Positions 10,710 through 58,284 of a stretch of 64,000 nucleotides of DNA are shown here, one piece after another. Position 1 is the stretch's first letter. The number at the start of each line of letters is the position of its first letter. The notes beneath the pieces were generated by a model. The model saw nothing but the letters and a program-made list of their open reading frames with translations, did no database searches and had not been told where the DNA came from. The DNA lies in NCBI GenBank assembly GCA_949317995.1, contig OX439038.1, positions 248,001-312,000 on the forward strand. Direction: 5' to 3'. Made by a program: the position numbers and the translations under genes. Origin of the DNA: Acholoe squamosa. Lineage: Eukaryota; Annelida; Polychaeta; Phyllodocida; Polynoidae.

Positions 10710-10790
10710 CTCTGCCACTGTGAGGGGTAACCTGCCAATACACAGCGTACCGTTATCAACACACGTGTTACATGTCAATACAAGTTACAT

Positions 10791-13416: not shown

Positions 13417-13503
13417 AGTGCACGACGTCCTCAAGGGCTCAGCGACCCACGTACCACCTTTAAGTGGATACCCCGGGGGATACCCATCATTTGGTAAGTA
13501 ACT

Positions 13504-16500
13504 CGCCAGGGCTTCTTTCATCTATCATGACGACCTACAGGTTTGATACACTAACAGGGATAGTGGCTACCTTCATCTATCATGACGACCTACAGGTTTG
13601 ATACACTAACAGGGATAGTGGCTACCTTCATCTATCATGAAGACCTACAGGTTTGATACACTAACAGGGTTAGTGGCTACCTTCATCTATCAGGTTTGAT
13701 ACACTAACAGGGATAGTGGCTACCTTCATCTATCATGACGACCTACAGGTTTGATACACTAACAGGGTTAGTGGCTACCTTCATCTATCATGACGACCTA
13801 CAGGTTTGATACACTAACAGGGATAGTGGCTACCTTCATCTATCATGACGACCTACAGGTTTGATACACTAACAGGGATAGTGGCTACCTTCATCTATCA
13901 TGACGACCTACAGGTTTGATACACTAACAGGGATAGTGGCTACCTTCATCTATCAGGTTTGATACACTAACAGGGATAGTGGCTACCTTCATCTATCATG
14001 ACGACCTACAGGTTTGATACACTAACAGGGTTAGTGGCTACATTCATCTATCATGACGACCTACAGGTTTGATACACTAACAGGGATAGTGGCTACCTTC
14101 ATCTATCAGGTTTGATACACTAACAGGGATAGTGGCTACCTTCATCTATCATGTTTGATACACTAACAGGGTTAGTGGCTACCTTCATCTATCATGACGA
14201 CCTATAGGTTTGATACACTAACAGGGTTAGTGGCTACCTTCATCTATCATGACGACCTACAGGTTTGATACACTAACAGGGTTAGTGGCTACATTCATCT
14301 ATCATGACGACCTACAGGTTTGATACACTAACAGGGTTAGTGGCTACCTTCATCTATCATGCTGACCTACAGGTTTGATACACTAACAGGGATAGTGGCT
14401 ACCTTCATCTATCAGGTTTGATACACTAACAGGGTTAGTGGCTACATTCATCTATCATGACGACCTAAAGGTTTGATACACTAACAGGGATAGTGGCTAC
14501 ATTCATCTATCAGGTTTGATACACTAACAGGGTTAGTGGCTACCTTCATCTATCATGACGACCTACAGGTTTGATACACTAACAGGGATAGTGGCTACAT
14601 TTATCTATCAGGTTTGATACACTAACAGGGTTAGTGGCTACCTTCATCTATCATGACGACGTACAGGTTTGATACACTAACAGGGTTAGTGGCTACCTTC
14701 ATCTATCATGACGACCTACAGGTTTGATACACTAACAGGGATAGTGGCTACCTTCATCTATCATGACGACCTACAAGTTTGATACACTAACAGGGATAGT
14801 GGCTACCTTCATCTATCAGGTTTGATACACTAACAGGGATAGTGGCTACCTTCATCTATCATGACGACCTACAGGTTTGATACACTAACAGGGTTAGTGG
14901 CTACCTTTATCTATCAGGTTTGATACACTAACAGGGTTAGTGGCTACATTCATCTATCAGGTTTGATACACTAACAGGGTTAGTGGCTACCTTCATCTAT
15001 CATGACGACCTACAGGTTTGATACACTAACAGGGTTAGTGGCTACCTTCATCTATCATGATGACCTACAGGTTTGATACACTAACAAGTTAGTGGCTACC
15101 TTCATCTATCATGACGACCTACAGGTTTGATACACTAACAGGGTTAGTGGCTACCTTCATCTATCAGGTTTGATACACTAACAGGGTTAGTGGCTACCTT
15201 CATCTATCAGGAGAACCTACAGGTTTGATACACTAACAGGGTTAGTGGCTACCTTCATCTATCATGACGACCTACAGGTTTGATACACTAACAGGGTTAG
15301 TGGCTACCTTCATCTATCATGCTAACCTACAGGTTTGATACACTAACAGGGATAGTGGCTACCTTCATCTATCAGGATTGATACACTAACAGGGTTAGTG
15401 GCTACCTTCATCTATCATGATGACCTACAGGTTTGATACACTAACAGGGTTAGTGGCTACCTTCATCTATCATGCTGACCTACAGGTTTGATACACTAAC
15501 AGGGTTAGTGGCTACCTTCATCTATCAGGTTTGATACACTAACAGGGATAGTGGCTACCTTTATCTATCATGACGACCTACAGGTTTGATACACTAACAG
15601 GGATAGTGGCTACCTTCATCTATCATGACGACCTACAGGTTTGATACACTAACAGGGTTAGTGGCTACCTTCATCTATCATGACGACCTACAGGTTTGAT
15701 ACACTAACAGGGTTAGTGGCTACATTCATCTATCATGACGACCTACAGGTTTGATACACTAACAGGGTTAGTGGCTACCTTCATCTATCATGAAGACCTA
15801 CAGGTTTGATACACTAACAGGGTTAGTGGCTACCTTCATCTATCATGACGACCTACAGGTTTGATACACTAACAGGGTTATTGGCTACATTCATCTATCA
15901 TGACGACCTACAGGTTTGATACACTAACAGGGATAGTGGCTACCTTCATCTATCAGGTTTGATACACTAACAGGGATAGTGGCTACCTTCATCTATCATG
16001 TTTGATACACTAACAGGGTTAGTGGCTACCTTCATCTATCATGACGACCTATAGGTTTGATACACTAACAGGGTTAGTGGCTACCTTCATCTATCATGAC
16101 GACCTACAGGTTTGATACACTAACAGGGTTAGTGGCTACATTCATCTATCATGACGACCTACAGGTTTGATACACTAACAGGGTTAGTGGCTACCTTCGT
16201 CTATCATGCTGACCTACAGGTTTGATACACTAACAGGGATAGTGGCTACCTTCATCTATCAGGTTTGATACACTAACAGGGTTAGTGGCTACATTCATCT
16301 ATCATGACGACCTACAGGTTTGATACACTAACAGGGATAGTGGCTACATTCATCTATCAGGTTTGATACACTAACAGGGTTAGTGGCTACCTTCATCTAT
16401 CATGACGACCTACAGGTTTGATACACTAACAGGGATAGTGGCTACATTTATCTATCAGGTTTGATACACTAACAGGGTTAGTGGCTACCTTCATCTATCA

Positions 16501-19500
16501 TGACGACGTACAGGTTTGATACACTAACAGGGTTAGTGGCTACCTTCATCTATCATGACGACCTACAGGTTTGATACACTAACAGGGTTAGTGGCTACCT
16601 TCATCTATCATGACGACCTACAGGTTTGATACACTAACAGGGATAGTGGCTACCTTCATCTATCATGACGACCTACAAGTTTGATACACTAACAGGGATA
16701 GTGGCTACCTTCATCTATCAGGTTTGATACACTAACAGGGATAGTGGCTACCTTCATCTATCATGACGACCTACAGGTTTGATACACTAACAGGGTTAGT
16801 GGCTACCTTCATCTATCAGGTTTGATACACTAACAGGGTTAGTGGCTACATTCATCTATCAGGTTTGATACACTAACAGGGTTAGTGGCTACCTTCATCT
16901 ATCATGACGACCTACAGGTTTGATACACTAACAGGGTTAGTGGCTACCTTCATCTATCATGATGACCTACAGGTTTGATACACTAACAAGTTAGTGGCTA
17001 CCTTCATCTATCATGACGACCTACAGGTTTGATACACTAACAGGGTTAGTGGCTACCTTCATCTATCAGGTTTGATACACTAACAGGGTTAGTGGCTACC
17101 TTCATCTATCAGGACGACCTACAGGTTTGATACACTAACAGGGTTAGTGGCTACCTTCATCTATCATGACGACCTACAGGTTTGATACACTAACAGGGTT
17201 AGTGGCTACCTTCATCTATCAGGATTGATACACTAACAGGGTTAGTGGCTACCTTCATCTATCATGCTAACCTACAGGTTTGATACACTACCAGGGTTAG
17301 TGGCTACCTTCATCTATCATGCTGACCTACAGGTTTGATACACTAACAGGGTTAGTGGCTACCTTCATCTATCAGGTTTGATACACTAACAGGGTTAGTG
17401 GCTACCTTCATCTATCATGACGACCTACAGGTTTGATACACTAACAGGGTTAGTGGCTACCTTCATCTATCATGACGACCTACAGGTTTGATACACTAAC
17501 AGGGTTAGTGGCTACCTTCATCTATCATGACGACCTACAGGTTTGATACACTGACAGGGAAAGTCGCTATATTCATCTATCAGGTTTGATACACTAACAG
17601 GGAAAGTGGCTACATTCATCTATCATGATGACCTACAGGTTTGATACACTAACAGGGTTAGTGGCTACCTTCATCTATCATGACGACCTACAGGTTTGAT
17701 ACACTAACAGGGAAAGTGGCTACCTTCATCTATCAGGTTTGATACACTAACAGGGATAGTGGCTACCTTTATCTATCATGACGACCTACAGGTTTCATAC
17801 ACTAACAGGGATAGTGGCTACCTTCATCTATCATGACGACCTACAGGTTTGATACACTAACAGGGTTAGTGGCTACCTTCATCTATCATGACGACCTACA
17901 GGTTTGATACACTAACAGGGATAGTGGCTACCTTCATCTATCATGACGACCTACAGGTTTTATACACTAACAGGGTTACTGGCTACATTCATCTATCATG
18001 ACGACCTACAGGTTTGATACACTAACAGGGATAGTGGCTACATTCATCTATCATGCTGACCTACAGGTTTGATACACTAACAGGGTTAGTGGCTACATTC
18101 ATCTATCATGACGACCTACAGGTTTGATACACTAACAGGGTTACTGGCTACCTTCATCTATCATGACGACCTACAGGTTTGATACACTAACAGGGTTAGT
18201 GGCTACCTTCATCTATCATGACGACCTACAGGTTTGATACACTAACAGGGTTAGTGGCTACCTTCATCTATCATGACGACCTACAGGTTTGATACACTAA
18301 CAGGGTTAGTGGCTACATTCATCTATCAGGTTTGATACACTAACAGGGTTAGTGGCTACATTCATCTATCATGACGACCTACAGGTTTGATACACTAACA
18401 GGGATAGTGGCTACCTTCATCTATCAGGTTTGATACACTAACAGGGTTAGTGGCTACCTTCATCTATCATGACGACCTACAGGTTTGATACACTAACAGG
18501 GATAGTGGCTACCTTCATCTATCATGACGACCTACAGGTTTGATACACTAACAGGGTCAGTGGCTACATTCATCTATCATGACGACCTACAGGTTTGATA
18601 CACTAACAGGGTCAGTGGCTACCTTCATCTATCATGACGACCTACAGGTTTGATACACTAACAGGGTCAGTGGCTACATTCATCTATCATGCCGACCTAC
18701 AGGTTTGATACACTAACAGGGATAGTGGCTACCTTCATCTATTATGACGACCTACAGGTTTGATACACTAACAGGGATAGTGGCTACATTCATCTATCAT
18801 GCCGACCTACAGGTTTGATACACTAACAGGGTTAGTGGCTACATTCATCTATCATGCCGACCTACAGGTTTGATACACTAACAGGGATAGTGGCTACCTT
18901 CATCTATCAGGTTTGATACACTAACAGGGTTAGTGGCTACATTCATCTATCATGACGACCTACAGGTTTGATACACTAACAGGGTTAGTGGCTGCCTTCA
19001 TCTATCAGGTTTGATACACTAACAGGGTTAGTGGCTACCTTCATCTATCAGGTTTGATACACTAACAGGGTTAGTGGCTACCTTCATCTATCATGACGAC
19101 CTACAGGTTTGATACACTAACAGGGTTAGAGGCTACCTTCATCTATCAGGTTTGATACACTAACAGGGATAGTGGCTACATTCATCTATCATGACGACCT
19201 ACAGGTTTGATACACTAACAGGGTTAGAGGCTACCTTCATCTATCAGGTTTGATACACTAACAGGGATAGTGGCTACATTCATCTATCATGACGACCTAC
19301 AGGTTTGATACACTAACAGGGTTAGAGGCTACCTTCATCTATCAGGTTTGATACACTAACAGGGTTAGAGGCTACCTTCATCTATCAGGTTTGATACACT
19401 AACAGGGATAGTGGCTACATTCATCTATCATGACGACCTACAGGTTTGATACACTAACAGGGTTAGTGGCTACATTCATCTATCAGGTTTGATACACTAA

Positions 19501-20124
19501 CAGGGTTAGTGGCTACCTTCATCTATTATGCCGACCTACAGGTTTGATACACTACAGGGTTAGTGGCTACATTCATCTATCAGGTTTGATACACTAACAG
19601 GGTTAGTGGCTACCTTCATCTATTATGCCGACCTACAGGTTTGATACACTAACAGGGTTAGTGGCTACCTTCATCTATCATGCCGACCTACAGGTTTGAT
19701 ACACTAACAGGGTTAGTGGCTACCTTCATCTATCATGACGACCTACAGGTTTGATACACTAACAGGGATAGTGGCTACCTTCATCTATTATGCCGACCTA
19801 CAGGTTTGATACACTAACAGGGTTAGTGGCTACCTTCATCTATCATGACGAACTACAGGTTTGATACACTAACAGGGTTAGTGGCTACCTTCATCTATCA
19901 TGACGACCTACAGGTTTGATACACTAACAGGGAAAGTGGCTACATTCATCTATCATGTTTGATACACTAACAGGGTTAGTGGCTACCTTCATCTATCATG
20001 ACGACCTACAGGTTAGATACACTAACAGGGTTAGTGGCTACCTTCATCTATCATGCCGACCTACAGGTTTGATACACTAACAGGGTTAGTGGCTACATTC
20101 ATCTATCAGGTTTGATACACTAAC
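13504..20124. repeat. 55-bp / 43-bp minisatellite, 6.6 kb
   Basis: The long unit is gacctacaggtttgatacac, taacagggttagtggctacc, ttcatctatcatgac (55 bp). The frequent short form is 43 bp and lacks 12 bases lying between two CA dinucleotides (tatCA...CAggtttg), as replication slippage would give. Variants such as gacgtacagg, cctataggt and ctaacaagtt act as position markers. The left edge (actcgccagggcttctttca) resembles actcaccagggctccattca near 23050, so both probably come from one dispersed parent. Confidence 0.97.
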
Positions 20125-20689
20125 GGAGGGTCGGCATGATGCCCGTGCATGATGCACTAAGGTGAGCAATTCACTGATGCACTCCTGCATCAGCAACCAT
20201 TAAATACAACAAAAGCAAAATGAGCTATTTTTTCTTTTGTAGCATGATAAGGATGGAATCACAATAGTCAGGACATAAATCATGAACATGGATGTTGTAA
20301 TCATATTTATTCAATCAGCACATAATTCTGCTTACACATGTATTGACTCATGACTGATAGTATACTTGATCTGACATAATTCTGGTTACCGGTACATATG
20401 TATTGACTGATAGTATACTTGATCTGACATAATTCTGGTTACCGGTACATATGTATTGACTGATTGTAATTTGTATACTTGATCCGACATAATTCTGGTT
20501 ACATATGTATAGACTGATAGTATACTTGATTTGACAATCAGCAGACTCAATATAAATAATGCTGTCAGTAGAAACTTAGTTCCTGAGAAAGAAGATATTT
20601 CTTTTACACCAAACTATCAAAGACTGACATTCAGCTAATGGTTTACTCGGTAGAGTTTATCAAAGACTGACATTCAGCTAATGGTTTAC
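20125..20689. repeat. Array flank with two small tandem repeats
   Basis: It begins with gcatgatgcactaag-type sequence related to the 34-bp repeat near 23.1 kb. From 20335 to 20530 there are about 3.5 copies of a roughly 60-bp unit (ctgacataattctggttacc ... tagtatacttgat). At 20625-20690 tatcaaagactgacattcag followed by ctaatggtttact occurs twice, and a third copy lies at about 22220, on the far side of the next element. Confidence 0.8.
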
Positions 20690-22213
20690 TACCTTAAATC
20701 CTCGCATTTAGGACGTGGCTTTTACACAAGAATAGCCTCAGGGTGCGTCCTATAGGATCTACCTGAACTCAGGGTGCGTCCTATAGGATCTACCTGAACT
20801 CAGGTTGCGTCCTGTAGGTGAGGATTTTACACTATAGAGCAGTAGTAATATTACCAGCTGCGTCCTATAGGATCTACCTAAACTCAGGGTGCGTCCTATA
20901 GGATCTACCTAAACTCAGGCTGCGTCCTGTATGTGAGGATTTTACACTATAGAGCAGTAGTAATATTACCAGCTGCGTCCTATAGGATCTACCTGAACTC
21001 AGGGTGCGTCCTGTAGGTGAGGATTTTACACTATAGAGCAGTAGTAATATTACCAGCTGCGTCCTATAGGATCTACCTGAACTCAGGGCGCATCCTATAG
21101 GTGAGGATTTTACACTATAGAGCAGAAGTAATATTACCAGCTGCGTCCTATAGGATCTACCTAAACTCAGGGTGCGTCCTGTATGTGAGGATTTTACACT
21201 ATAGAGCAGTAGTAATATTACCAGCTGCGTCCTATAGGATCTACCTAAACTCAGGGTGCGTCCTATAGGATCTACCTAAACTCAGGCTGCGTCCTGTATG
21301 TGAGGATTTTACACTATAGAGCAGTAGTAATATTACCAGCTGCGTCCTATAGGATCTACCTGAACTCAGGGTGCGTCCTATAGGATCTACCTGAACTCAG
21401 GGTGCGTCCTATAGGTGGGGATTTTACACTATAGAGCAGAAGTAATATTACCAGCTGTATCCTATAGGATCTACCTAAACTCAGGCTGCATCCTATAGGT
21501 GGGGATTTTACACTATAGAGCAGAAGTAATATTACCAGCTGCGTCCTTAAGGATTTAGCACAACTCAGGATGCATCCTATAGGTGAGGATTTTACACTAT
21601 AGAGCAGAAGTAATATTACCAGCTGCGTCCTATAGGATCTACCTGAACTCAGGGTGCGTCCTATAGGATCTACCTGAACTCAGGGTGCGTCCTATAGGAT
21701 CTACCTGAACTCAGGGCGCGTCCTATAGGTGGGGATTTTACACTATAGAGCAGAAGTAATATTACCAGCTGCATCCTATAGGATCTACCTGAACTCAGGC
21801 TGCGTCCTATAGGATCTACCTGAACTCAGGGTGCGTCCTATAGGTGAGGATTTTACACTATAGAGCAGTAGTAATATTACCAGCTGTATCCTATAGGATC
21901 TACCTGAACTCAGGGTGCGTCCTATAGGTGGGGATTTTACACTATAGAGCAGTAGTAATATTACCAGCTGTATCCTATAGGATCTACCTGAACTCAGGCT
22001 GCATCCTATAGGTGGGGATTTTACACTATAGAGCAGAAGTAATATTACCAGCTGTATCCTATAGGATCTACCTGAACTCAGGCTGCGTCCTATAGGTGAG
22101 GATTTTACACTATAGAGCAGTAGTAATATTACCAGCTGCGTCCTTAAGGATTTAGCACAACTCAGGATGCGTCCTATACACGAGGGGCATCCTATACACG
22201 AGAATTTACAGTA
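20690..22213. mobile_element. TACCGTA-family MITE with its interior expanded into a minisatellite
   Basis: The left end TACCTTAAATCCTCGCAT and right end ACGAGAATTTACAGTA correspond to the terminal inverted repeats of the element at 45240-45476. Between them lie about 17 copies of an 84-bp unit, and of its 30-bp half, containing tgcgtcctataggatctacc and ggattttacactatag. The 45.2-kb element has the same order once: tgcgtcttataggatgtact ... attttactatag. So the array appears to have grown inside one transposon copy. Frame-open stretches on the minus strand are repeat artefacts. Confidence 0.8.
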
Positions 22214-22639
22214 GGTAGTGTTTATCAAAGACTGACATTCAGCTAATGGTTTACTAGGTACATTTAAGTGGAAGCCTGAGAAGAGTATGACATTGAAGGA
22301 ACAGTAAAAAATTTGACAATCAGGTGATAATTACCCCCTCGCGCAATGACGGGACTTAACTTGTCATCTTTGTTTTATGAGGGAAATCTGTGATTATCAT
22401 GGTGCTGAAGTTACCGTACCTGCCCTTATTAACACCGGTGTCTTAAAAAAGCACATGGAACAAAGGTTTTGAAGCTAATTGAAGTATACATCATTTTTAA
22501 TGACTTAAATAAGCGCCGATCTTGTATTTAAGCACTTTGGGTACAGCCTAGCTGTTTTCATCAGGCACTTATACAGCCCACTCTAGTATATGAAGCATTT
22601 ACTGTGTGTTTACATATTGAATGAAAAACCTTTATTTTC
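22214..22639. other. Intergenic sequence
   Basis: The stretch starts with the third copy of tatcaaagactgacattcag. At about 22487-22560 it holds a decayed fragment with taaataagcgcc, as in the 47.8-kb MITE. No coding region was seen. Confidence 0.5.
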
Positions 22640-22935
22640 TACCGTAATCTCCCGCATATAAGGAGCATCTTATATGGGGGGTTTTAGTTCTCATTGGATC
22701 CACAAGGGGGACACCAACACCGTTCTTTTGATATCTTACATGCCCCCTTGGTCATAATAGGACATAAGGGGGCCAAGGAGGGTCTGGGGTGGCCCAAACT
22801 ACACATAGGTTTTTGAATTTTGAAAATTCATTCAGTAGAACCAAAGTTATGCATTTTTCATTTTTTTGAGAATTTTCCAAAACTCTAGGTGCGCCTTATA
22901 TGCAGGCTGCGCCTTATACGCGGGAGATTACAGTA
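22640..22935. mobile_element. TACCGTA-family MITE, 296 bp
   Basis: The ends are TACCGTAATCTCCCGCATAT and GCGGGAGATTACAGTA, a long imperfect inverted repeat. Subterminal TATAAG/CTTATA motifs are present (ataaggagc, gcgccttata). If the outer TA is counted as target duplication, insertion was at TA. There is no coding capacity. Confidence 0.8.
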
Positions 22936-23054
22936 CTACATTTATGTCTGTTTAACAATTTAAGGGCCGATGAGGCAGAAGTGCATCTTGCCCATTGGTG
23001 CATCATGCTGACCTGGAAGATCATGAGGCATTAATGCAGCCCTAGCGAGTTACT

Positions 23055-23185
23055 CACCAGGGCTCCATTCATGCATCGTGACAACCAATGGGCATGATGC
23101 ATTAATGCATCGTGACAACCAATGGGCATGATGCATTAATGCATCATGACAACCAATGGGCATGATGCATTAATGCATCAGCCAC
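23055..23185. repeat. 34-bp tandem repeat, about three copies
   Basis: The unit gcatcgtgacaaccaatggg plus catgatgcattaat repeats at 34-base steps from 23073. The stretch before it (ttactcaccagggctccatt) matches the left edge of the 13.5-kb array, which points to a shared ancestral sequence. Confidence 0.85.
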
Positions 23186-23395
23186 TCTTAAAGGGTTAAA
23201 CAACATCCAACAGGAATATGGTAACATGATGAAAAGTGGAATTCATTCTAACTACATTTAGGTTTACATGTAAATGCCCACAATTTCTTTCCAATATCTT
23301 TTTGTCTTTCAGACAATCGGCACATTAGTTTATAACTCATGATTTGGTAGAAGACTTTGTCCTGGCTCACATCCCTTTTACAGAAGCCGATTGTT

Positions 23396-26400: not shown

Positions 26401-29400
26401 TATATAAAGATTACAATATAAGCCACACCCTGTGTTAAAGATTACAATATAAGCTGCACCTTGTGTTAAAGATTACAATATAAGCCACACCCTGTGTTAA
26501 AGATTACAATATAAGCCACACCCTGTGTTAAAGATTACAATATAAGCTGCACCTTGTGTTAAAGATTACAATATAAGCTGCACCTTGTGTTAAAGATTAC
26601 AATATAAGCTGCACCTTGTGTTAAAGATTACAATATAAGCCACACCCTGTGTTAAAGATTACAATATAAGCTTCACCTTGTGTTAAATGATTGATTGATT
26701 TGTGTTTTACAGCACTTTAGCGGCACTAAGTGGCTATCCCGTGCTTCACAGGTTGATAAATTTAACAGAGGAATGTGTCAGTACTCGCACATATGTTCAC
26801 CTTGTGTTAAAGATTACAATATAAGCCACACCCTGTGTTAAAGATTACAATATAAGCCACACCCTGTGTTAAAGATTACACCATGTTAAATCTTACATTA
26901 TAGGGCACACCCCAGGTAACCCACTGTCTCTATGCAGTAGTACATTATCTAGCTTCATTGATAGAACCATTAAAAACTCACCAGTAACCTAAGAGATGGA
27001 CGGAAGTGGCATCGTTTGGTCGTAGCTCTATCGCCTTCTGCAGAATCAATAGAAATGAGGGTGAATTGACGAGTTTCAACAAGTCTGAATGTTCATACTG
27101 GATAACATAAAACCTCTTGTAAAAAAACACCCCCCTGGTTCAAGAAGAGTATATTTTTTTTTGGGGGGGGGGGAATAACACTTGTAAATAAAATTTATAG
27201 CTGCATCTCATTCTGCAGCTGTTCTGTTATGCAAACCACTATGCACTATCGGTATTGGTATCTGTACTACATGCCCCATTGACGACTCACCATGAAGTGG
27301 TCCTTGACAAGGAAAGCATTTGTAATCCGCTGTTTGGTCCCCTCCAGCTCACCGACACCATCCAACAATATGGCGTACCACTGTAAGGTAAAAAATAAAG
27401 TCAGTATGTACCCACACTGTCCAACAATATGGCGTACCACTGCAAGGTAAGGCTTAAAGTCGGTATGTGTATCCTCAGACATGTGTCATTAAATAGCTTA
27501 GACAATACTGATGCAAAAAATGCATACTTATCCCACGCAGTGAGCACTATGTGTGTAATGAAAATATAAAAGTACTTGTGTAAAACTTAACGCCTGCAGC
27601 GACTGTTGGGACATAACCAACGGCCATTAAAAGTTTGTAGTTCTTGTAGAAATCTGGAAGATTTCATAGTAAATAAGCCAAAGCTGGGATGTGCGTGTAG
27701 CTGCTGCAGGATCGCGTGCTGAACTGATGCATTATGGGATAGTAGTTCAAGTGTCCATTTCCGTTGTGAATACTTCGTCTGCATAGTAACCAGACATAAA
27801 CCTTAACGCCTCAAGTGCTCCTTAACTACATACAGTTGGACAGTACAGTAAACTGGATACATGTAGCGCTCCTTGACTACATACAGTTGGACGGGGCAGT
27901 AAACTGGATACATGTAGGGCTCCTTGACTACATACAGTTGGACAGTACAGTAAACTGGATACATGCAGCGCTCCTTGACTACATACAGTTGGACAGTACA
28001 GTAAACTGGATACATGTAGGGCTCCTTGACTACATACAGTTGGACAGTACAGTAAACTGGATACATGTAGGGCTCCTTGACTACATACAGTTGGACAGTA
28101 CAGTAAACTGGATACATGTAGCGCTCCTTGGGTACATACAGTTAGACAGTACAGTAAACTGGATACATGTAGCGCTCCTTGGCTACATACAGTTGGACAG
28201 TACAGTAAACTGGATACATGCAGCGCTCCTTAACTACATACAGTTGGACAGTACAGTAAACTGGATACATGTAGCGCTCCTTGGGTACATACAGTTGGAC
28301 AGTACAGTAAACTGGATACATGCAGCGCTCCTTGACTACATACAGTTGGACAGTACAGTAAACTGGATACATGTAGGGCTACTTGGGTACATACAGTTGG
28401 ACAGTACAGTAAACTGGATACATGTAGGGCTACTTGACTACATACAGTTGGACAGTACAGTAAACTGGATACATGCAGCGCTCCTTGACTACATACAGTT
28501 GGACAGTACAGTAAACTGGATACATGCAGCGCTCCTTAACTACATACAGTTGGACGGGGCAGTAAACTGGATACATGTAGCGCTCCTTGGGTACATACAG
28601 TTGGACAGTACAGTAAACTGGATACATGTAGTGCTCCTTAACTACATACAGTTGGACAGTACAGTAAACTGGATACATGTAGGGCTACTTGACTACATAC
28701 AGTTGGACAGTACAGTAAACTGGATACATGTAGGGCTACTTGACTACATACAGTTGGACAGTACAGTAAACTGGATACATGCAGCGCTCCTTGACTACAT
28801 ACAGTTGGACAGTACAGTAAACTGGATACATGTAGCGCTACTTGGCTACATACAGTTGGACAGTACAGTAAACTGGATACATGTAGGGCTACTTGACTAC
28901 ATACAGTTGGACAGTACAGTAAACTGGATACATGTAGCGCTCCTTAACTACATACAGTTGGACGGGGCAGTAAACTGGATACATGCAGCGCTCCTTGACT
29001 ACATACAGTTGGACAGTACAGTAAACTGGATACATGTAGCGCTCCTTAACTACATACAGTTGGACAGTACAGTAAACTGGATACATGCAGCGCTCCTTGA
29101 CTACATACAGTTGGACAGTATAGTAAACTGGATACATGTAGGGCTACTTGACTACATACAGTTGGACAGTACAGTAAACTGGATACATGTAGGGCTCCTT
29201 GACTACATACAGTTGGACAGTATAGTAAACTGGATACATGCAGCGCTCCTTGGCTACATACAGTTGGACAGTACAGTAAACTGGATACATGTAGGGCTCC
29301 TTGACTACATACAGTTGGACGGCGCAGTAAACTGGATACATGTAGCGCTCCTTGACTACATACAGTTGGACGGGGCAGTAAACTGGATACATGCAGCGCT

Positions 29401-32400
29401 CCTTGACTACATACAGTTAGACAGTACAGTAAACTGGATACATGCAGCGCTCCTTGACCACATACAGTTGGACGGGGCAGTAAACTGGATACATGTAGCG
29501 CTCCTTGACTACATACAGTTGGACAGTACAGTAAACTGGATACATGCAGCGCCCCTTGACTACATACAGTTGGACAGTACAGTAAACTGGATACATGCAG
29601 CGCTCCTTGACTACATACAGTTGGACAGTACAGTAAACTGGATACATGCAGCGCTCCTTGACTACATACAGTTGGACAGTACAGTAAACTGGATACATGC
29701 AGCGCTCCTTGACTACATACAGTTGGACAGTACAGTAAACTGGATACATGCAGCGCTCCTTGACTACATACAGTTGGACAGTACAGTAAACTGGATACAT
29801 GCAGCGCTCCTTGACCACATACAGTTGGACGGGGCAGTAAACTGGATACATGCAGCGCTCCTTGACTACATACAGTTGGACGGGGCAGTAAACTGGATAC
29901 ATGCAGCGCTCCTTGACTACATACAGTTGGACGGCGCAGTAAACTGGATACATGTAGCGCTCCTTGACTACATACAGTTGGACGGGGCAGTAAACTGGAT
30001 ACATGCAGCGCTCCTTGACTACATACAGTTAGACAGTACAGTAAACTGGATACATGCAGCGCTCCTTGACCACATACAGTTGGACGGGGCAGTAAACTGG
30101 ATACATGCAGCGCCCCTTGGCTACATACAGTTGGACAGTACAGTAAACTGGATACATGTAGCGCTCCTTGGCTACATACAGTTGGACAGTACAGTAAACT
30201 GGATACATGCAGCGCTCCTTGACTACATACAGTTGGACAGTACAGTAAACTGGATACATGCAGCGCCCCTTGGCTACATACAGTTGGACAGTACAGTAAA
30301 CTGGATACATGTAGCGCTCCTTGGCTACATACAGTTGGACGGGGCAGTAAACTGGATACATGCAGCGCTCCTTGGCTACATACAGTTGGACAGTACAGTA
30401 AACTGGATACATGTAGCGCTCCTTGACTACATACAGTTGGACAGTACAGTAAACTGGATACATGCAGCGCCCCTTGGCTACATACAGTTGGACAGTACAG
30501 TAAACTGGATACATGTAGCGCTCCTTGGCTACATACAGTTGGACAGTACAGTAAACTGGATACATGTAGCGCTCCTTGGCTACATACAGTTGGACAGTAC
30601 AGTAAACTGGATACATGTAGCGCTCCTTGACTACATACAGTTGGACGGTACAGTAAACTGGATACATGCAGCGCTCCTTGACTACATACAGTTGGACAGT
30701 ACAGTAAACTGGATACATGCAGCGCTCCTTGGCTACATACAGTTGGACGGGGCAGTAAACTGGATACATGTAGCGCTCCTTGACTACATACAGTTGGACA
30801 GTACAGTAAACTGGATACATGTAGCGCTCCTTGACTACATACACTTGGACGGGGCAGTAAACTGGATACATGCAGCGCTCCTTGACTACATACAGTTGGA
30901 CGGAGCAGTAAACTGGATACATGTAGCGCTCCTTGACTACATACACTTGGACGGGGCAGTAAACTGGATACATGCAGCGCTACTTGACTACATACAGTTG
31001 GACGGGGCAGTAAACTGGATACATGCTGCAGCTACATATATATGTTTGCCTGATGAAACTTCCTATCACATCTCTTAAAATCAATTTTTGTAACTTTTAC
31101 TTCAATCTAAACTTTCAACTTTGAATTATAATATTGTGGAGGATGCACCTCCCTCCGCCATGGATCCAGCACCACTAGTGTAGTGATCAAAGAGTGATTA
31201 GCAAAACTGATAAAACATGTCACAACTAGGCCACCCTTAAAGATATATCCCGTTTCCTGCCCAGAGGGTGTGATTTTCCAGACCCATTAGGGAGGGAGGG
31301 AAATATTTATGACTTTTTTTTATGAATATGGTAAGTAGGGGCAGCATGAATCTGTCATCATGTTCTAATTTTGAGGGATTGGAAACCAAGAATCTTGGAC
31401 TGTAAGGACAAAAAAAAGAAGAAAATTTTCACTAGGCCTCTGGACGGGAAATGAATATATTTTAAAGTGTGGCCCTATTGCCATGATTTATACCTTATGT
31501 GCAGCAAAGCTGTTGTCGTCCAGGTCTAGCGCTTTTTTAACGTGTTCAAACGACTCATACAGGAAGGCCTTCTTCTCCTCTGCCTTGTCGCTCAGTTTGC
31601 TCATTTCATACGCAGCGCGCCCCAGGCGCCATTGTACGTCACACACGGGGTGGTCGCGGTGAGACTTTAGTACGCTGTATAACTCTACGATGTTATTGTC
31701 GTCATACAGTCGGTCTGCTTCTACAATCAGCTTCTCATGTGGACTCATCTCTGTGAATATACAGGAGTAACGGATGTCTTAGTTATTACTCTATAACCCC
31801 ACGATGTTATTATCATCATACAGTCAGTCTGCTTCTACAATCAGCTTCTCATGTGAGCTTCTCATGTGGACTCATCTCTGTGAATATACAGGAGTAATGG
31901 GATGTGTTAGTTACTGGAATTAGATATAATAAGACTCAATATGAGGAATAGGGAGCAATCCAGTATGAAATGACATACCTTTTATTCTACTTGATCAAAC
32001 TTGAAAGATCAACTGCTATCTAGGATCTCACTGGGCAGGCTAACACACCATACAACAGGGAAGTTTTAATTTATCCCTTACCCCATCTCTCCTCCTCCAC
32101 CTAAGTCTATAAGCTTTGTCTTGTATGCGAGGGTTTATGGTAGGTATTGAAGTTTGAAAAGAATAAAATGAGAAATAGGGATGAAGAGTTGGTTCCAGGA
32201 AAAAAAAACCTTTATACATGTCCAAATGGTACAACTAATGTAAGCTCAACTAAGAACTGATTGATATTTCTATATTAGAGCATGATTCACTGCACATAAA
32301 AGTCACCATCCAGTAAATATTATTGATTGCGGAGCTCCTCTCTGGCATGCACGGAGATCCAAGTCAAACAACCGAAGCTGCCCTCAGGCACAAGTTCAGT

Positions 32401-41400: not shown

Positions 41401-43946
41401 GTCCACTTTCCTGGTCTTCAAAATTAGGAAAACGTCACAGAATATCTAAAATGAATTAATGATGTGATAATATAATATTTTCCCTACAAGGAAAACCTAA
41501 CGGCATCAAAATCCATTGACAATTCAATGACTTATGACCATTTATATTGAAGATGCCAAGTGTGCTTTTTTATCATTTTCTGTGAAAACTCCTTCTGACA
41601 GCCTGTACACAATCACCTCTTGTACAAAAACTACTACCGTAAATCCCCGGTCATAAGCCGTTTTTTTTTTGTATTTTGGGCCCAAACCGGCTTCTATTTT
41701 TTTTCCCAAACTCCCCCCCGGCTTATGACCGTTTTTTTTTTTACTATAGATTAAAGAGAAAATGGTAAAAATTTGACCCAAAAACCGGCTTTTATTTTTT
41801 TCCTGAACTCACCCCTCGGCTTTTGACCGGGGCCGGCTTGTGACCGGGAATTTACGGTACTGACATTAAGAAGATAAATCTAATTGATTCATAGAGGGAA
41901 AATGTTGGGCTTTGTTATGACAGGTGATAGATAGCTCTGTGATGACATTTTCAATTTCTTAGATTCTTGCCAGGACCCCATGTTCGGGCAGATTCAGGGC
42001 AATTCTCAGTGAAAAGCCTGTTCCAGACAGTATCTCAACATGATGGATTTTGCTATCAAACCCATATCAAACCCTAATAGAAACACATTTTTCGCACTTC
42101 TAGCATCCTAAAGTATTGATAAATTTAGTTTTTTGAAAAACAATTTTTAACCCCTTGCCATGCCTACTCATGCAGTGGAGGTATGTCATAGTTGGATCGG
42201 CGCCCAACTCACATACTTGTTGTGAGTTGGGCATACTGGGGCCTGAGTTTTTGAGATTGGATGCGCCTCCATTTTAGGCGCACTCTCCTATATTCATTCC
42301 TGCTTCAAATACAACATAACTTGTATTTTTGGGTATTTTAAAAATCCTGACATTCTTTACTGGAGAAATAACATGGCGGCCATGTTGGATTTTCGGACAT
42401 GCACTTGGTGAATTTACAGCTCATGTAGCTTTAGAAATATACTGAGATATGATTCAATTTTTTTAAATCATCTAGACATATACCTAAAGTTTACACAACA
42501 TTAATGATTTAGTTCAATTCTACTTTTAAGTTGTCAAACTAAGCACATGTAAACAATGCATGTGGTACTTCCGGTGCTACACGCCTACAGCATGCGACCA
42601 CTATCAATCTCAGCTACTTGTTAGTCTTGTATGAAGCTCTCTGAGACCCTATAACGTAGTGTCATTAGGGTCTCAGATCTGTGACTAGTATAAGTATGCC
42701 AGTGCCTACCCAGTCAGTAGGAATAACACCCCTGCACCCACTCCCGCTAGTCCCTATCTGTCACTATAGTAAATCAATCAATATGATTTTCTATTTTAGG
42801 GCTCTTTTCCACTGTCAACATGAACTATTTTCATGTACCAAGGGTAAAAATAACCAAGGAATTAGAATTTGTGGGTCATTTTACTCTAGATCCAGTCACT
42901 GATTTGATATCTTAACAGTTCTCAAAGGGTATTGGTGTGCCCAGACTGTAATTTCTATAAAACCTTGAAATATAAAATGCTGATATTTTTGTTAATTCTT
43001 GGTCAATTTTTACATTTGAGACCTCTATTGAAAGCTTAAGACATTATCAGTTACCATAGAGGGAGAAAGAATGAAATATCTGGACAGATTGTATATATTT
43101 TAGAAGAGTTATGACTTAAACCCGAAAATATCAAAACTAAATATTTGTGTAACTTTTTTAAATTTATATGAGATAACCACAAAAGTGTGTACTTTTAGGA
43201 TCTGTAATCAGCTATTTATTATCTATTAGCCCAAATTAGCCCAAAGCTAAAGAGTATAGGAGAGTTGAGTAAAAAATCCAAGAATTTCAGGTCTGCTTAT
43301 CACACTGCCATTTAGAAAATTTTGACTTTCCAACATGATCTATAATACTTATCTTAGTTCCTTTTGATGCAAAATATAGCCCATTAATCCCCAAACTGTT
43401 GTGCTTACAGTGATGTAACTGGTTACGCTCTATGATCGTTCAATCAAATTTAATTTGAGATTAAGTAAAGTAAGGTCTGAAATGTGTGAGAACCAGTGCA
43501 GCCTGTGCACAGTGGGCAGGGACTGATAAGAGCCACACTGGGTGGAAATCCACTGACAGAAAATATTATAGAAATTCCACATTCAATCCCTTATAACTTC
43601 TGTTCTAGTAACACTATGAAGACAATTTAAACACCATTAAATTACTCAAGTTGCCAGCTTCCCGGTGATGTAAAATTATCCGGGTAAATCCAAAATAAAA
43701 GTTTGGCATGTTAATGATGTTTTCCCTACAGTCACTGAGTCAGTGACACTGACAGTCAAGTCACAGTGGGATTTTTGCCAAAATGCATAAACCAAACACC
43801 ACAACTCCCCTTCCTGCACTTACACTGCCTCCTAGGCTTTGTTTTCTGCTACATCCTTCAAGATTTTTGCGAGCAGCATTCCTAAATCGGAGTAAATTCT
43901 GCCAAGATTTGCCGTAGCAGAAGACTTGTTGCCTGAAAGCCGCCAT
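23396..43946 (-). CDS. RMDN1: RMDN1-A: complete RMDN1 gene, nine exons, 305 residues
   Basis: Regulator of microtubule dynamics protein 1: a TPR-like helical-repeat protein of a family (founder RMD-1 in C. elegans) that binds microtubules and acts in chromosome segregation; the vertebrate protein is also found at mitochondria. Coding exons: 43946-43824, 32771-32672, 31750-31494, 27380-27291, 27037-26982, 26307-26220, 25803-25773, 25500-25367, 23434-23396. All phases agree, all borders are GT-AG, and the sum is 305 codons plus stop. Residues 1-41 are basic and Arg-rich like a mitochondrial presequence. Residues 45-65 are hydrophobic. The family core follows, with QWRLGRA, EHVKKAL, WYAILL, EGTK, KAIELRPNDAT, MPWYQRK, SPPTSTY and EPNFYSKNLMMLGKTYLRLG. 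Exons 3-9 are certain by family match. Exons 1 and 2 rest on phase, splice sites, composition and length. Confidence 0.88.
23766..25351. repeat. 35-bp minisatellite in intron 8 of RMDN1-A
   Basis: About 45 copies of catggcttcaactgtagctc plus caacagaagccacat. Variants include catcatgg/catcaggg, gaagcc/gaggcc and single-base changes. The array stops about 15 bases short of the donor of exon 8 at 25366, so it fills nearly the whole exon-side end of the intron. Confidence 0.95.
25367..25500 (-). CDS. RMDN1: RMDN1-A exon 8 (EPNFYSKNLMMLGKTYLRLG)
   Basis: This is the most conserved part of the family: the human protein reads DPNFYSKNLLLLGKTYLKL here. The exon ends with HQYPVKTEDDKA. Acceptor CTTGTAG, donor GTGAGT, 134 bases. 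Confidence 0.93.
25773..25803 (-). CDS. RMDN1: RMDN1-A exon 7 (31-base micro-exon)
   Basis: The exon encodes ALQYFERAET plus one base of a split codon and matches the ALxxFxxAE segment of the family. Acceptor TGTTTCAAG, donor GTAAGT. It is short enough for ORF-based annotation to miss. Confidence 0.88.
26220..26307 (-). CDS. RMDN1: RMDN1-A exon 6 (MPWYQRK)
   Basis: The exon completes the split Trp and encodes CFLFADMPWYQRKVAA then SPPTSTYDE, against WCYTFAEMPWYQRR and TPPSSTYEK in human RMDN1. This segment separates RMDN1 from RMDN2/3, which have LSWLEKK-type sequence here. Acceptor TTGACAG, donor GTAAGT. Confidence 0.93.
26405..26688. repeat. 31-bp array in intron 5 of RMDN1-A, left block
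   Basis: Nine copies of gattacaatataagccaca plus ccctgtgttaaa, alternating with a tgcaccttg form. The ataagccacaccctg motif matches ataaggcgcaccctgagtta at 58155-58175, so the array derives from a TATAAG-type MITE. Confidence 0.92.
26689..26805. mobile_element. Insertion interrupting the 31-bp array
   Basis: About 115 bases (tgattgattgatttgtgttt then tacagcactttagcggcact) break an otherwise regular array that resumes at about 26806. The flanking array copies both read cttgtgttaa/caccttgtgttaa. It looks like a short dispersed element, perhaps a SINE fragment. Family unassigned. Confidence 0.45.
26806..26885. repeat. 31-bp array in intron 5, right block
   Basis: About 2.5 further copies of the same unit follow the insertion. 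The last decays into ttacattatagggcacaccc. Confidence 0.85.
26982..27037 (-). CDS. RMDN1: RMDN1-A exon 5 (KAIELRPNDATSVHLLGY)
   Basis: This 56-base exon is in phase with exon 6 through a split Trp codon. Human RMDN1 has KAIELNPKDATSIHLMGIW here. Acceptor TTCTGCAG, donor GTGAGT. Confidence 0.92.
27291..27380 (-). CDS. RMDN1: RMDN1-A exon 4 (WYAILLDGVGELEGTK)
   Basis: This 90-base phase 0-0 exon ends NAFLVKDHFM. Acceptor TTACAG, donor GTGAGT. Just upstream in the transcript (27440-27415) lies a tandem copy of its acceptor and first codons. Confidence 0.93.
27382..27475 (-). repeat. Duplicated 3' splice site upstream of exon 4
   Basis: The intron-exon junction of exon 4 is repeated 59 bases upstream in the transcript (decoy AG at 27440, true AG at 27381). 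The decoy encodes WYAILLDSVGTY and then a stop. Confidence 0.85.
27476..27812. other. Intron 3 sequence before the 51-bp array
   Basis: Unique sequence. Open frames here have no family match and no repeat structure was seen. Confidence 0.5.
27813..31031. repeat. 51-bp minisatellite in intron 3 of RMDN1-A, about 63 copies
   Basis: The unit is ctccttgactacatacagtt, ggacagtacagtaaactgga, tacatgtagcg. The 51-bp length is a multiple of three and the plus strand of the unit lacks stops in one frame, which creates an uninterrupted 1087-codon frame antisense to RMDN1. Variant blocks ggacagtaca/ggacggggca alternate along the array. The even divergence and intron position argue against a coding role. 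Confidence 0.97.
31032..31493. other. Intron 3 sequence next to exon 3
   Basis: Unique AT-rich sequence with no feature recognised. Confidence 0.5.
31494..31750 (-). CDS. RMDN1: RMDN1-A exon 3 (QWRLGRA helical core)
   Basis: The exon encodes a split Glu codon, then a segment starting MSPHEKLIVEADRLYDDN and ending DDNSFAAHK. Human RMDN1 has ILEQADYLYESGE and LLWRLARA in this part. Acceptor ATTCACAG, donor GTATAA. The Met is internal in the nine-exon model. Confidence 0.93.
31791..31912 (-). repeat. Truncated tandem copy of exon 3 and its acceptor
   Basis: This segment repeats 31677-31790: the first part of exon 3, the acceptor and the intron next to it. The decoy AG is at 31878, 127 bases upstream of the true one. 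A further 13-base internal repeat (agcttctcatgtg) puts a stop after eight codons (MSPHEKLT). Confidence 0.88.
31913..32671. other. Intron 2 of RMDN1-A
   Basis: Mostly unique. A splice-like segment near 32440-32490 reads open on the minus strand, but its phases do not fit exons 2 and 3. No repeat element was recognised. Confidence 0.45.
32672..32771 (-). CDS. RMDN1: RMDN1-A exon 2 (hydrophobic segment)
   Basis: The exon encodes IGHVTPRLALGLAVPFVP, then TVHAFWGKKTTEPVI, and one base of the Glu codon shared with exon 3. Acceptor TTACTTCCAG, donor GTAAGT, entry phase 0, exit phase 1, as needed. The hydrophobic stretch is a plausible membrane anchor in the place where human RMDN1 has its moderately hydrophobic LLLSALSYLG region. 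Confidence 0.75.
33242..33572. mobile_element. Palindromic MITE-like element in intron 1
   Basis: Two arms of 98 bases (33242-33339 and 33475-33572) are imperfect reverse complements, for example ggattcatgcagctctcagt against the complement of gggagctgcgtgaatcc. The spacer is 135 bases. No target duplication was identified. Confidence 0.65.
33573..33811. other. Intron 1 sequence
   Basis: Unique sequence between two MITEs. Nothing recognised. Confidence 0.4.
33812..34123. mobile_element. MITE copy 1 with 8-bp target duplication
   Basis: The element is 33820-34115, flanked by gcttatta at 33812-33819 and 34116-34123. It shares its whole length, from gctaaaagctaaatggtaaa to ttaccttaaaagc, with copy 2 at 35868. 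Subterminal inverted repeats ggtaaatga...tcatttacc lie about 14 bases inside each end. An 8-bp duplication suggests hAT, although the outer ends do not carry the usual CAGGG. Confidence 0.8.
34121..36720 (-). mobile_element. DIRS-like retroelement fossil: gag-type ORF1 and leader
   Basis: On the minus strand, about 35340-34120, is a gag-type region: a Gln/Pro/Gly-rich low-complexity N-terminus, a Pro-Tyr stretch, an acidic run, a basic patch and a helical domain with DKRVADLVDGAF, YPQPVNV and VKKLQGFILTAIV. This order and the YPxPxN pattern resemble ORF1 of tyrosine-recombinase (DIRS-type) retrotransposons. Upstream is a leader with diverged repeats of about 190 bp (copies at about 35410 and 35597, each with ctatgtgtacc and tgacctactctgagagtag). 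It looks broken, with about two breaks and no reverse transcriptase, RNase H or recombinase part in the window. The still-readable domain suggests moderate age. A MITE sits in the leader and another abuts the 3' side. Outer limits are approximate. Confidence 0.55.
35860..36216. mobile_element. MITE copy 2 with 8-bp target duplication
   Basis: The element is 35868-36208, flanked by gcagaaca at 35860-35867 and 36209-36216. It is the same family as copy 1 at 33820, about 45 bases longer because of an internal stretch with ggggcagagccccccaa. Near the ends it keeps a perfect ggtaaatgacgggggacc and its reverse complement. It inserted into the leader of the gag-type fossil. Confidence 0.85.
36721..38640. 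other. Intron 1 sequence with small local repeats
   Basis: It contains gcatgcgcggcctggc twice in tandem (36755-36790, NRF-1-like), a C run and a G run near 37410-37500, a tggacaaaggagagt motif twice (37652, 37791), three diverged copies of about 50 bp around ggccaggacatcgctaagcc (37885-37995), and two copies of about 60 bp around gggaactgcgggaggctgcg (38225-38330). No exon could be supported. Confidence 0.5.
39646..39705. promoter_or_regulatory. CRE, NRF-1 and YY1-like motif cluster
   Basis: TGACGTCA (39646-39653) is followed by GCGCATGCGC (39664-39673) and AAAATGGTGGC (about 39698). CRE, NRF-1 and YY1 motifs together are usual for CpG-type metazoan promoters. The cluster lies just inside the left arm of the inverted repeat. 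No gene start was found beside it. Confidence 0.4.
39802..39964. repeat. Imperfect 80-bp-arm hairpin
   Basis: The sequence from 39802 to about 39882 pairs with 39883-39964: cagtttgag, gtttcttcac, gcccgctccgcac and cggcc each meet their complements. The tip is GC-rich (cggcctaccggcc). It could be a MITE or a structured RNA segment. Confidence 0.75.
40005..40559. mobile_element. Nested MITE with GGCACTTACC ends
   Basis: The outer ends GGCACTTACC (40005-40014) and GGTAAGTGCC (40550-40559) are exact complements. Homology continues inward for about 200 bases (ttttgctttttgaatga-type and atgtcaatttaaatgg-type blocks, then gaattctgcc near the middle). No clear target duplication. Confidence 0.65.
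40942..41109 (-). other. Possible phase 0-0 cassette exon in RMDN1-A intron 1
   Basis: On the minus strand 56 codons are open between an AG acceptor (CTCTATAG) and a GTAGTG donor. The text starts VLLQGGGKVDHTQTEELG and ends ETVIKLKL. It is locally GC-richer than its surroundings. Both borders are phase 0, as is the exon 1/exon 2 junction, so inclusion would keep the frame. The family protein does not need it, since length fits without it. I do not recognise the sequence. Confidence 0.25.
41635..41859. mobile_element. TACCGTA-family MITE, 225 bp
   Basis: The ends are TACCGTAAATCCCCGGTCAT and TGACCGGGAATTTACGGTA. Internal cataagccg/cggcttatgacc motifs repeat. It is the same family plan as the elements at 22640 and 45240, with CCGGTCATAAG in place of CCGCGTATAAG. 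Confidence 0.85.
42202..42232. repeat. Perfect 12-bp-arm palindrome
   Basis: GCCCAACTCACA and TGTGAGTTGGGC are separated by 7 bases. It lies in the spacer of the 5-kb inverted repeat. Confidence 0.75.
42371..42385. promoter_or_regulatory. YY1-like dyad ACATGGCGGCCATGT
   Basis: A near-perfect palindrome with an ATGGCGGC/GCCGCCAT-type core on both strands. A motif observation only. Confidence 0.25.
43824..43946 (-). CDS. RMDN1: RMDN1-A exon 1 (basic N-terminus)
   Basis: The exon encodes 41 residues from MAAFRQQVFCYGKSW to SRKQSLGGS, with no acidic residue before Glu30 and many Arg/Lys, as in a mitochondrial presequence. The ATG lies in CAAGATGGCGGC. Donor CAGTGTAAGT, exit phase 0, which fits exon 2. 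Joined to exon 2 it gives an N-terminus of the family's length. Its link to exon 2 spans an 11-kb intron and is inferred. Confidence 0.65.
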
Positions 43947-45239: not shown

Positions 45240-45476
45240 TACCGTAAACTCCCGCGTATAAGACGCGTCCTCTATGCCAAACAAATGCCTTGTGCGTCTT
45301 ATAGGATGTACTGAAATTGGGGGTGCGTCTTATACGAGGGGTAATTTTACTATAGAAATGTACTAATCTTACAAATTCCATCCTTAAAATGTGCGTCTTA
45401 TACGCGAAAATGCCTTTGCTGAGTTTGGGGTGCATCTTATACGCGCAATGCGTCTTCTACGCGGGAGATTACGGTA
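45240..45476. mobile_element. TACCGTA-family MITE, 237 bp
   Basis: The inverted ends run about 27 bases (TACCGTAAACTCCCGCGTAT; right end CGCGGGAGATTACGGTA). Four internal cttata/tataag units precede gcg. This copy preserves once the sequence that is tandemly amplified at 20690-22213. TA flanks suggest TA target sites. Confidence 0.88.
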
Positions 45477-52700: not shown

Positions 52701-52840
52701 TGTAGAGCAGTAGTACATGGCATACATGTACCATTATGTAGTAATACATGGCATACATGTGTCATGATGTAGAGCAGTAATACATGGCATACATGTATCA
52801 TTATGTAGAGCAGTAGTACATGGCATACATGTATCATTGT
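49708..52840. repeat. 36-bp minisatellite, about 86 copies
   Basis: Unit atgtagagcagtaatacatg plus gcatacatgtatcatt. A 39-bp form has an extra gtt and a 31-bp form lacks agagc. atgtatcatt/atgtaccatt are the main variants. Lengths of 36 and 39 keep frame on both strands and create long spurious open frames. Confidence 0.97.
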
Positions 52841-52854
52841 TCTGCAGGGTCAAA

Positions 52855-52946
52855 TACCCCGCATGAGCCACACACTGACTTGGGGAACTTCTTATAAGCC
52901 ACAATAAGTATCTGGTTTGCGTATAAGCTGTGGGAATTTACCGTGA
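52855..52946. mobile_element. TATAAG-type MITE remnant between two arrays
   Basis: It contains ccccgcatgagccacacac, cttataagccacaa and gcgtataagctgtgggaatt followed by taccgt. It is a decayed relative of the TACCGTA family. Confidence 0.5.
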
Positions 52947-53054
52947 GTTTGTCGACTTCAGTCGCTTATGTCTCATTCATACTAGAAAAGCACTTTTTTC
53001 TACTGGGGTGTTTGTTGCTCAATGAATATGTATATGTAGATAATGTGTTGTGAA

Positions 53055-58280: not shown

Positions 58281-58284
58281 TTGT

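What the first reader, a model, noticed from the sequence alone, without database searches (positions are those of the whole stretch)
20690..22213. A minisatellite that grew inside one MITE
Both ends of this 1.5-kb stretch match the inverted ends of the MITE at 45240-45476. Between them the order tgcgtcctataggatctacc ... attttacactatag, present once in the 45.2-kb copy, is repeated about 17 times. This catches transposon-to-satellite conversion with the parent structure still visible, and a plain copy 23 kb away serves as reference.
Basis: partly seen in the sequence, partly recalled or inferred. Interest (0 to 1): 0.75.

Follow-up and report, generated by a model that had tools for sequence, protein, structure and literature searches.

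The report
Minisatellite grown inside a small transposon
A small non-coding jumping gene in a eukaryote's genome has had its middle copied over and over into a 1.4-kb repeat array while both its ends stayed readable, a clear new example of an already described way in which repeat arrays arise.

Summary
20690-22213 is one TA-flanked inverted-repeat element with an array inside; 45240-45476 is an unexpanded relative. Bounds are exact: the element splits a copy of a 43-bp host repeat, which is again 43 bp when one TA is counted. The array has 36 units: 20 A (31 bp), 14 B (53 bp), 2 A' (31 bp). Three elements share a plan L-A-B-A'-C-R: this one, 45240-45476, and a more distant one at 41635-41859. 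A' is an old copy of A, so the unexpanded plan already held a direct repeat around B. Exchange between A and A', or between module-start motifs, gives the duplications seen. Units carry 1 private change in 1,362 positions while the element's ends differ at 7 of 26, so the array looks younger than the insertion. This is a new member of a known kind (Xenopus Xstir and miDNA4, Drosophila Tetris, bacterial BrickBuilt). A second inverted-repeat family in the window (22952-23199) also carries an array, and the 6.6-kb array at 13510-20124 may be a late stage of it.

The parts
20618..20660 (+). host 43-bp tandem repeat, copy 1 (uninterrupted; has TC where the others have TA)
   Evidence: 30-nt core exact; period 43
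20661..20689 (+). host 43-bp repeat, copy 2, left part (29 bp) interrupted by the element
   Evidence: 29 + TA + 12 = 43 bp
20690..22213 (+). whole expanded MITE, TA to TA (1,524 bp)
20690..20744 (+). module L with left terminal inverted repeat
   Evidence: 7 of 26 mismatches to the 45-kb end; L vs m45 L z=5.5
20745..22168 (+). array of 36 units: 20 A (31 bp), 14 B (53 bp), 2 A' (31 bp); order AABAABABABABAABAABABA'BAAABAABABABABA'
21541..21571 (+). A' unit inside the array, identical to the terminal A' at 22138-22168
20818..21012 (+). 195-bp block repeated exactly at 21185-21379 (lag 367)
22138..22168 (+). module A', old divergent duplicate of A
   Evidence: 75.6% mean identity to the 20 A units; A vs A' z=8.2
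22169..22186 (+). module C (18 bp)
22187..22213 (+). module R with right terminal inverted repeat
   Evidence: 6 of 26 mismatches to the 45-kb end; R vs m45 R z=6.7
22214..22225 (+). host 43-bp repeat, copy 2, right part (12 bp)
22226..22260 (+). host repeat copy 3, carries a single TA at the insertion point (empty-site reference)
45240..45476 (+). unexpanded relative m45: L54-A31-B68-A'39-C18-R27
   Evidence: internal direct repeats of 12, 13 and 14 bp at module starts
41635..41859 (+). unexpanded, more distant relative m41: L53-A31-B67-A'31-C17-R26
   Evidence: A vs A' z=6.9; 49-column, 86% direct repeat covering A and A'
22640..22935 (+). relative m22: same ends and right part (C, R), otherwise different interior
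32117..32142 (-). lone end-like sequence, 6 mismatches, no partner found

Best explanation
The feature is a non-autonomous DNA transposon (a MITE with TA target-site duplication, most likely Tc1/mariner-type) whose internal A and B modules have multiplied in tandem. Shown: the element bounds, the empty site, the L-A-B-A'-C-R plan shared with m45 and, more weakly, with m41, and a 36-unit array made only of whole A, B and A' modules. Inferred: the ancestor, like these relatives, carried A twice (A and A') around B, and its modules opened with a shared motif of about 12-14 bp. Misaligned exchange, or slippage during repair or replication, between A and A' gave AB-AB-A'. Exchange between the motif at the start of A and that at the start of B gave extra single A units. 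Later unequal exchange copied multi-unit blocks, once carrying the terminal A' into the interior. Most amplification or homogenisation happened after the element had landed and its ends had begun to decay.
For: Ends match beyond shuffles, and insertion at a TA in a 43-bp repeat leaves an exact empty site. Modules A and B match the 45-kb interior in the same order and position. m45 has 12-bp (lag 31), 14-bp (lag 68) and 13-bp (lag 99) exact direct repeats at module starts; 200 shuffles reach at most 10. A vs A' similarity exceeds every one of 1000 shuffles in each of three elements. All 36 units are whole modules, with no partial ones. Two exact repeats of 80 bp or more, 195 bp and 90 bp, at lags 367 and 283. 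All four combinations at B columns 15 and 37, neither in a CpG, point to exchange within the array. Private variants are 1 of 1,362 unit positions against 7 of 26 differences between the ends.
Against: Only one expanded copy is available, so growth after insertion is inferred from divergence and not seen directly. The end-versus-array age comparison mixes two kinds of change, and gene conversion could keep an old array looking young. Relatives m22, m41 and m45 have 3, 2 and 2 differences between their own ends, so some of the 7 may predate insertion. The exact-repeat test for a seed holds only for m45: m22's longest (11 bp) is within its shuffles (maximum 13), and m41's longest (13 bp) is mostly a run of T. 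m41 matches the one-copy expanded element at z=4.5, its B module only weakly (59 of 1000 shuffles reach it), and most of its modules score low one by one. m22 lacks the A-B part. Module cuts were made at motifs chosen after seeing each sequence. Placement in Tc1/mariner rests on the TA duplication alone; no transposase was found.
Confidence: 0.87

Rival explanations
1. Capture: the MITE picked up or was interrupted by a tandem repeat that already existed, as proposed for Xenopus miDNA4.
For: The window is full of other minisatellites, so source arrays are plentiful.
Against: The units are the MITE's own modules, in its own order. Outside the element and m45, BLAST of the whole element against the window gave only 19-base hits at E about 1.
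Confidence: 0.05
2. The array formed in an earlier element and was moved here at full length by transposition; this locus is one of many long copies.
For: Some described MITE-borne arrays occur in many copies (BrickBuilt; Tetris). Nothing in the window excludes it.
Against: Of four paired family elements in 64 kb only one is expanded. Units are nearly free of private changes while the ends have diverged, so much of the turnover seems later than insertion.
Confidence: 0.2
3. The similarity of the ends to the MITE is chance, and this is an ordinary minisatellite.
For: The two ends differ from the 45-kb end by 7 and 6 of 26, and a plain gapped inverted-repeat scan of the flanks did not flag the pair (p=0.26).
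Against: A search with the family's own end sequence finds both, exactly placed, with the TA and a matching empty site; shuffles give 0.03 hits per window. The interior also matches.
Confidence: 0.01
4. The array was selected because each unit carries a copy of the terminal motif, taken here as a transposase binding site: more sites, better transposition.
For: A search for GCGTCTTATA with one mismatch allowed anywhere found 6 sites in m45, all with CTT, and 21 in the expanded element, all with CCT; most of the 21 are array copies and not independent. Over 14 bp at 6 modules in 3 elements, within-element identity is 0.749 against 0.595 for the same module between elements; 3 of 5000 permutations reach it. 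That internal repeats can hold extra transposase sites is said of Galileo, and a similar course is suggested for Tetris, in the passage read.
Against: The modules were cut at motifs holding these very letters, so that test is partly circular; only the L module is free of it. Between m45 and the expanded element alone the difference is small (0.771 against 0.738). The expanded element's ends have diverged, and it is probably immobile. Gene conversion would give the same concordance.
Confidence: 0.15

Closest known systems
miDNA4 of Xenopus tropicalis (Scalvenzi and Pollet 2014; original not seen, described in passages of reviews PMC12628747 and PMC9659126)
   Same: Tc1/mariner-type MITE with an internal satellite in one to many copies
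   Different: There the tandem repeat is thought to have been captured and to expand by short flanking AT-rich direct repeats; here the unit is the element's own A and B modules and the seed is A-B-A'
Xstir / MITE of Xenopus (Hikosaka and Kawahara 2004; original not seen, passages in PMC12628747)
   Same: MITE, tandem array and composite forms, with repeats that may derive from MITE internal sequence
   Different: Sequences not compared; the mechanism proposed there is a stem-loop formed by neighbouring elements
Tetris TIR-220 of Drosophila virilis (PMC4079207, passages, one from the abstract)
   Same: Internal tandem repeats derived from the element act as seeds of longer arrays; extra transposase sites proposed as a reason for growth
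   Different: Foldback element with repeats of about 220 bp inside long TIRs; kb-size arrays elsewhere in the genome
BrickBuilt of Porphyromonas gingivalis (PMC4596501, abstract and section 7 part 1)
   Same: A minisatellite of short units bounded by leader and tail with inverted-repeat ends
   Different: Bacterial, IS5-type ends, 23-bp unit, 19 occurrences in one genome
Tandem repeat-containing MITEs of the clam Donax trunculus (Satovic and Plohl 2013; title seen in a reference list; paper not held)
   Same: By title, MITEs carrying tandem repeats
   Different: Not read; cannot compare

Membership tests
MITE | short, non-coding, terminal inverted repeats | tested here: met
   225-296 bp in the three unexpanded relatives, ends mismatched at 2-3 of 26. 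6 of the 40 listed ORFs were scanned with Pfam and none matched a transposase; the other 34, many of them array-coded, were not scanned
MITE | target-site duplication with empty site | tested here: met
   TA at both ends in 4 of 4 paired elements, though the search sequence itself began with TA; the empty site inside the 43-bp repeat for the expanded one is independent of that
MITE | several dispersed copies | tested here: met
   four paired elements in 64 kb; genome-wide number unknown
Tc1/mariner-type (TA-inserting) MITE | TA target duplication | tested here: met
Tc1/mariner-type (TA-inserting) MITE | ends shared with an autonomous element coding a DDE transposase of this group | not testable with these tools
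   no genome held; end pattern gave 0 matches in viral contigs and 1, about chance, in prokaryote genomes
Tandem-repeat-bearing MITE / MITE-derived minisatellite | tandem units derived from the element's own interior | tested here: met
Tandem-repeat-bearing MITE / MITE-derived minisatellite | copy number varies between copies or individuals | tested here: inconclusive
   one A-B in m45 and m41 against 14 B units here; no other individuals available

The most novel reading that the evidence does not exclude
In this genome, minisatellites may regularly be born inside MITEs, seeded by motif copies inside the element that evolve in concert with its ends. One 64-kb window would hold the series: unexpanded (45.2 and 41.6 kb), 3-4 units (23.07 kb, second family), 36 units (20.7 kb) and about 6.6 kb of array (13.5-20.1 kb, second family).
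Probability: 0.3. Interest if true: 0.55.

Novelty: new member of a known kind. Interest (0 to 1): 0.4.

Why it matters
Conversion of a transposon into a satellite is often inferred from sequence likeness alone. Here the landing site, both ends, the unexpanded module plan and the likely seed repeats are all readable at one locus and its neighbours, so steps from one copy to 36 units can be reconstructed from sequence. If other MITEs of the genome follow the same path, the source of its abundant minisatellites becomes testable.

Tried and rejected
No whole genome is held for the window, so copy number and other expanded copies could not be counted. The end pattern found nothing in viral contigs and one match in a bacterial MAG, about what chance gives for 19 fixed bases in 257 Gb (my estimate for even base composition, about 1.9 expected); it was not pursued. 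Two literature searches for the end motif returned 1 and 17 papers; going by titles and abstract openings none concerns a MITE (one is on the gypsy retroelement of flies); none was read. Single-strand folding of four stretches gave no notable structure (z between -1.6 and +0.5), so hairpin-driven slippage was not adopted. A gapped inverted-repeat screen around 16 arrays (the array at 1-7967, at the window edge, was left out) put only the 23.07-kb array beyond all its shuffles and missed the known case, so its negatives mean little. The motif concordance test leans on m41, is weak for m45 against the expanded element alone, and is partly circular because modules were cut at those motifs; one search is the freer test. 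The pattern that cut the array into units required TCCT, so agreement of the units on that base is not evidence. The two A' units were left out of the A variation counts. In the module z-tests the weak ones were m45 A' (1.6 against A', higher against A, C and R), m45 C (3.2, slightly higher against R), and in m41 all but R (5.4): A 0.8, B 1.7, C 1.6, L 2.4, A' 2.5. The m41 plan therefore rests on module order and lengths, the A/A' repeat, z=4.5 for the whole, and the TTTTACTATAGA core at the same offset in B of m41 and m45. For the second family, the self-comparison of the collapsed window at E 0.01 did not list the likeness to the 13.5-kb array edge; it appears only with the element as query.

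Full report
Observation. The stretch 20690-22213 starts and ends with TA. Its first 26 bases match the left end of the element at 45240 with 7 mismatches, and its last 26, reverse-complemented, match with 6. In 60 dinucleotide shuffles of the window, both strands, matches with 7 or fewer mismatches averaged 0.03 (at most 2) and matches with 6 or fewer never occurred. The landing site settles the bounds. A 43-bp host repeat occurs at 20618, at 20661 and at 22226. The middle copy is split by the element into 29 bp and 12 bp, which with a single TA make 43 bp, and the third copy carries a plain TA at the same place; the first copy has TC there. So the insertion made a TA duplication.

Array. Cut at the recurring GCGTCC-type motif, the interior falls into 36 units with only two lengths: 22 of 31 bp and 14 of 53 bp, with no partial unit. 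Two of the 31-bp units, at 21541 and 22138, are identical to each other and differ from the rest (75.6% mean identity); I call them A'. The order is AABAABABABABAABAABAB-A'-BAAABAABABABAB-A', followed by two short modules, C (18 bp) and R (27 bp).

Family plan. The 45-kb element has the modules L54-A31-B68-A'39-C18-R27. A further relative at 41635-41859 has L53-A31-B67-A'31-C17-R26. The expanded element has L55, the array of A and B, A'31, C18 and R27. The cuts were made at a motif chosen for each element by eye (GCGTCC, GCGTCTT, CGGCTT types). A and B of the expanded element match A and B of the 45-kb copy with z=7.2 and 5.7, and the one-copy version of the whole element matches with z=12.8. 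m41 is more distant: the whole matches with z=4.5; its B shares a TTTTACTATAGA core at the same offset with m45 (9 of 1000 shuffles reach the score) but only weakly matches the expanded B (59 of 1000). A fourth element, 22640-22935, has the same ends and C, R modules but another interior.

Seed. In each of the three module-bearing elements A and A' resemble each other more than in any of 1000 shuffles. In m41 a direct repeat of 49 aligned columns, 86% identical, begins 4 bp before A and recurs 4 bp before A'. In m45 the module starts share exact direct repeats of 12 bp (lag 31), 14 bp (lag 68) and 13 bp (lag 99), while 200 shuffles reach at most 10; the same exact-repeat test is negative for m22 (11 against a shuffle maximum of 13) and in m41 finds mainly a T run. 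The unexpanded plan A-B-A' is therefore already a short tandem repeat, one period and a part. Exchange of A with A' duplicates AB; exchange between neighbouring motif copies duplicates A alone. These are the two duplications seen. An A' followed by B inside the array (21541) is what exchange between a right-end A' and an internal A would leave. These steps are inferred.

Turnover and age. Apart from the two A' units, the 34 units vary at only 5 positions in A and 5 in B, nearly all shared by several units; there is 1 private change in 1,362 unit positions. The two exact repeats of 80 bp or more, 195 bp at lag 367 and 90 bp at lag 283, run across several units. Two pairs of B columns and two of A columns, among those with two states, show all four combinations; one B pair (15, 37) is outside CpG, so recurrent deamination is an unlikely cause. 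The element's ends differ from each other at 7 of 26 positions, against 3, 2 and 2 in the three relatives. Fisher's test between 7 of 52 and 1 of 1,362 gives p about 5e-10, but the two counts measure different things, so I use it only to say that the array is young relative to the element. Either it grew late or it has been homogenised since.

Motif concordance. With one mismatch allowed anywhere, GCGTCTTATA has 6 sites in m45, all CTT, and 21 in the expanded element, all CCT, mostly array copies. Over six modules in three elements the 14-bp motif agrees better within elements than between them (0.749 against 0.595; 3 of 5000 permutations), but the modules had been cut at those motifs, so the test is partly circular, and for m45 and the expanded element alone the difference is small. 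This may be gene conversion or shared selection by a transposase. It is a lead, not a result.

Second case. The element at 22952-23199 has TTAA at both ends and inverted arms (22944-22999 against 23152-23206, score 49, z 15.9, none of 200 shuffles; ends), with a 34-bp array (23066-23179) that runs into the right arm. The left edge of the 6.6-kb, 55-bp array at 13510-20124 matches this element at its own array edge (BLAST E 8.7e-5), though the whole-window self-comparison at E 0.01 does not list it. The DNA right of that array matches the element's arms (0 of 500 shuffles for each), and the two repeat units resemble each other (score 33, shuffle maximum 31 of 500). The expected left arm could not be found (178 and 73 of 500 shuffles as good). 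So that array may be a late stage in a second family, unproven.

Comparison. Tandem growth inside MITEs is in print: Xstir and miDNA4 in Xenopus, described in the passages of PMC12628747 and PMC9659126 that I read; Tetris (PMC4079207, passages); BrickBuilt (PMC4596501, abstract and part of one section). The Donax paper is not held. The end motif was not found in a MITE paper in two searches of the held library (listings only). I therefore file this as a new member of a known kind, with unusually complete anatomy. The host was not identified. I take it for a eukaryote from its sequence character, probably an animal on weak evidence: one ORF gives a sub-threshold match (18.2 bits, cut-off 26.7) to the regulator of microtubule dynamics family, and no whole genome is held for the window.

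Noticed in passing
22952-23199: Second, unrelated inverted-repeat element bounded by TTAA (piggyBac-like by recall) with a 34-bp tandem array (23066-23179) running into its right arm, 0.7 kb from the first element.
   Followed up: partly
13497-20214: The 6.6-kb array of 55-bp units has a left edge and a right flank related to the TTAA element at 22952-23199, so it may be a far-expanded member of that family; its left arm was not found.
   Followed up: partly
22640-22935: Another element with the same ends as the finding but a different interior.
   Followed up: partly
38637-39556 and 42723-43674: A 0.95-kb inverted duplication, 91% identical, probably another repeat family.
   Followed up: no
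10453-10714 and 31492-31753; 33819-34117 and 35867-36210: Dispersed repeats of 262 bp (76%) and about 346 aligned columns (78%).
   Followed up: no
33243-33571; 39804-39962: Two self-complementary stretches (331 and 160 aligned columns), possibly further MITEs.
   Followed up: no
1-7967, 27817-31025, 49720-55193, 55942-63580: The window is very rich in minisatellites: I grouped the larger tandem-repeat rows into 16 arrays for and left out several short ones (such as 31843-31868 and 34266-34333).
   Followed up: no
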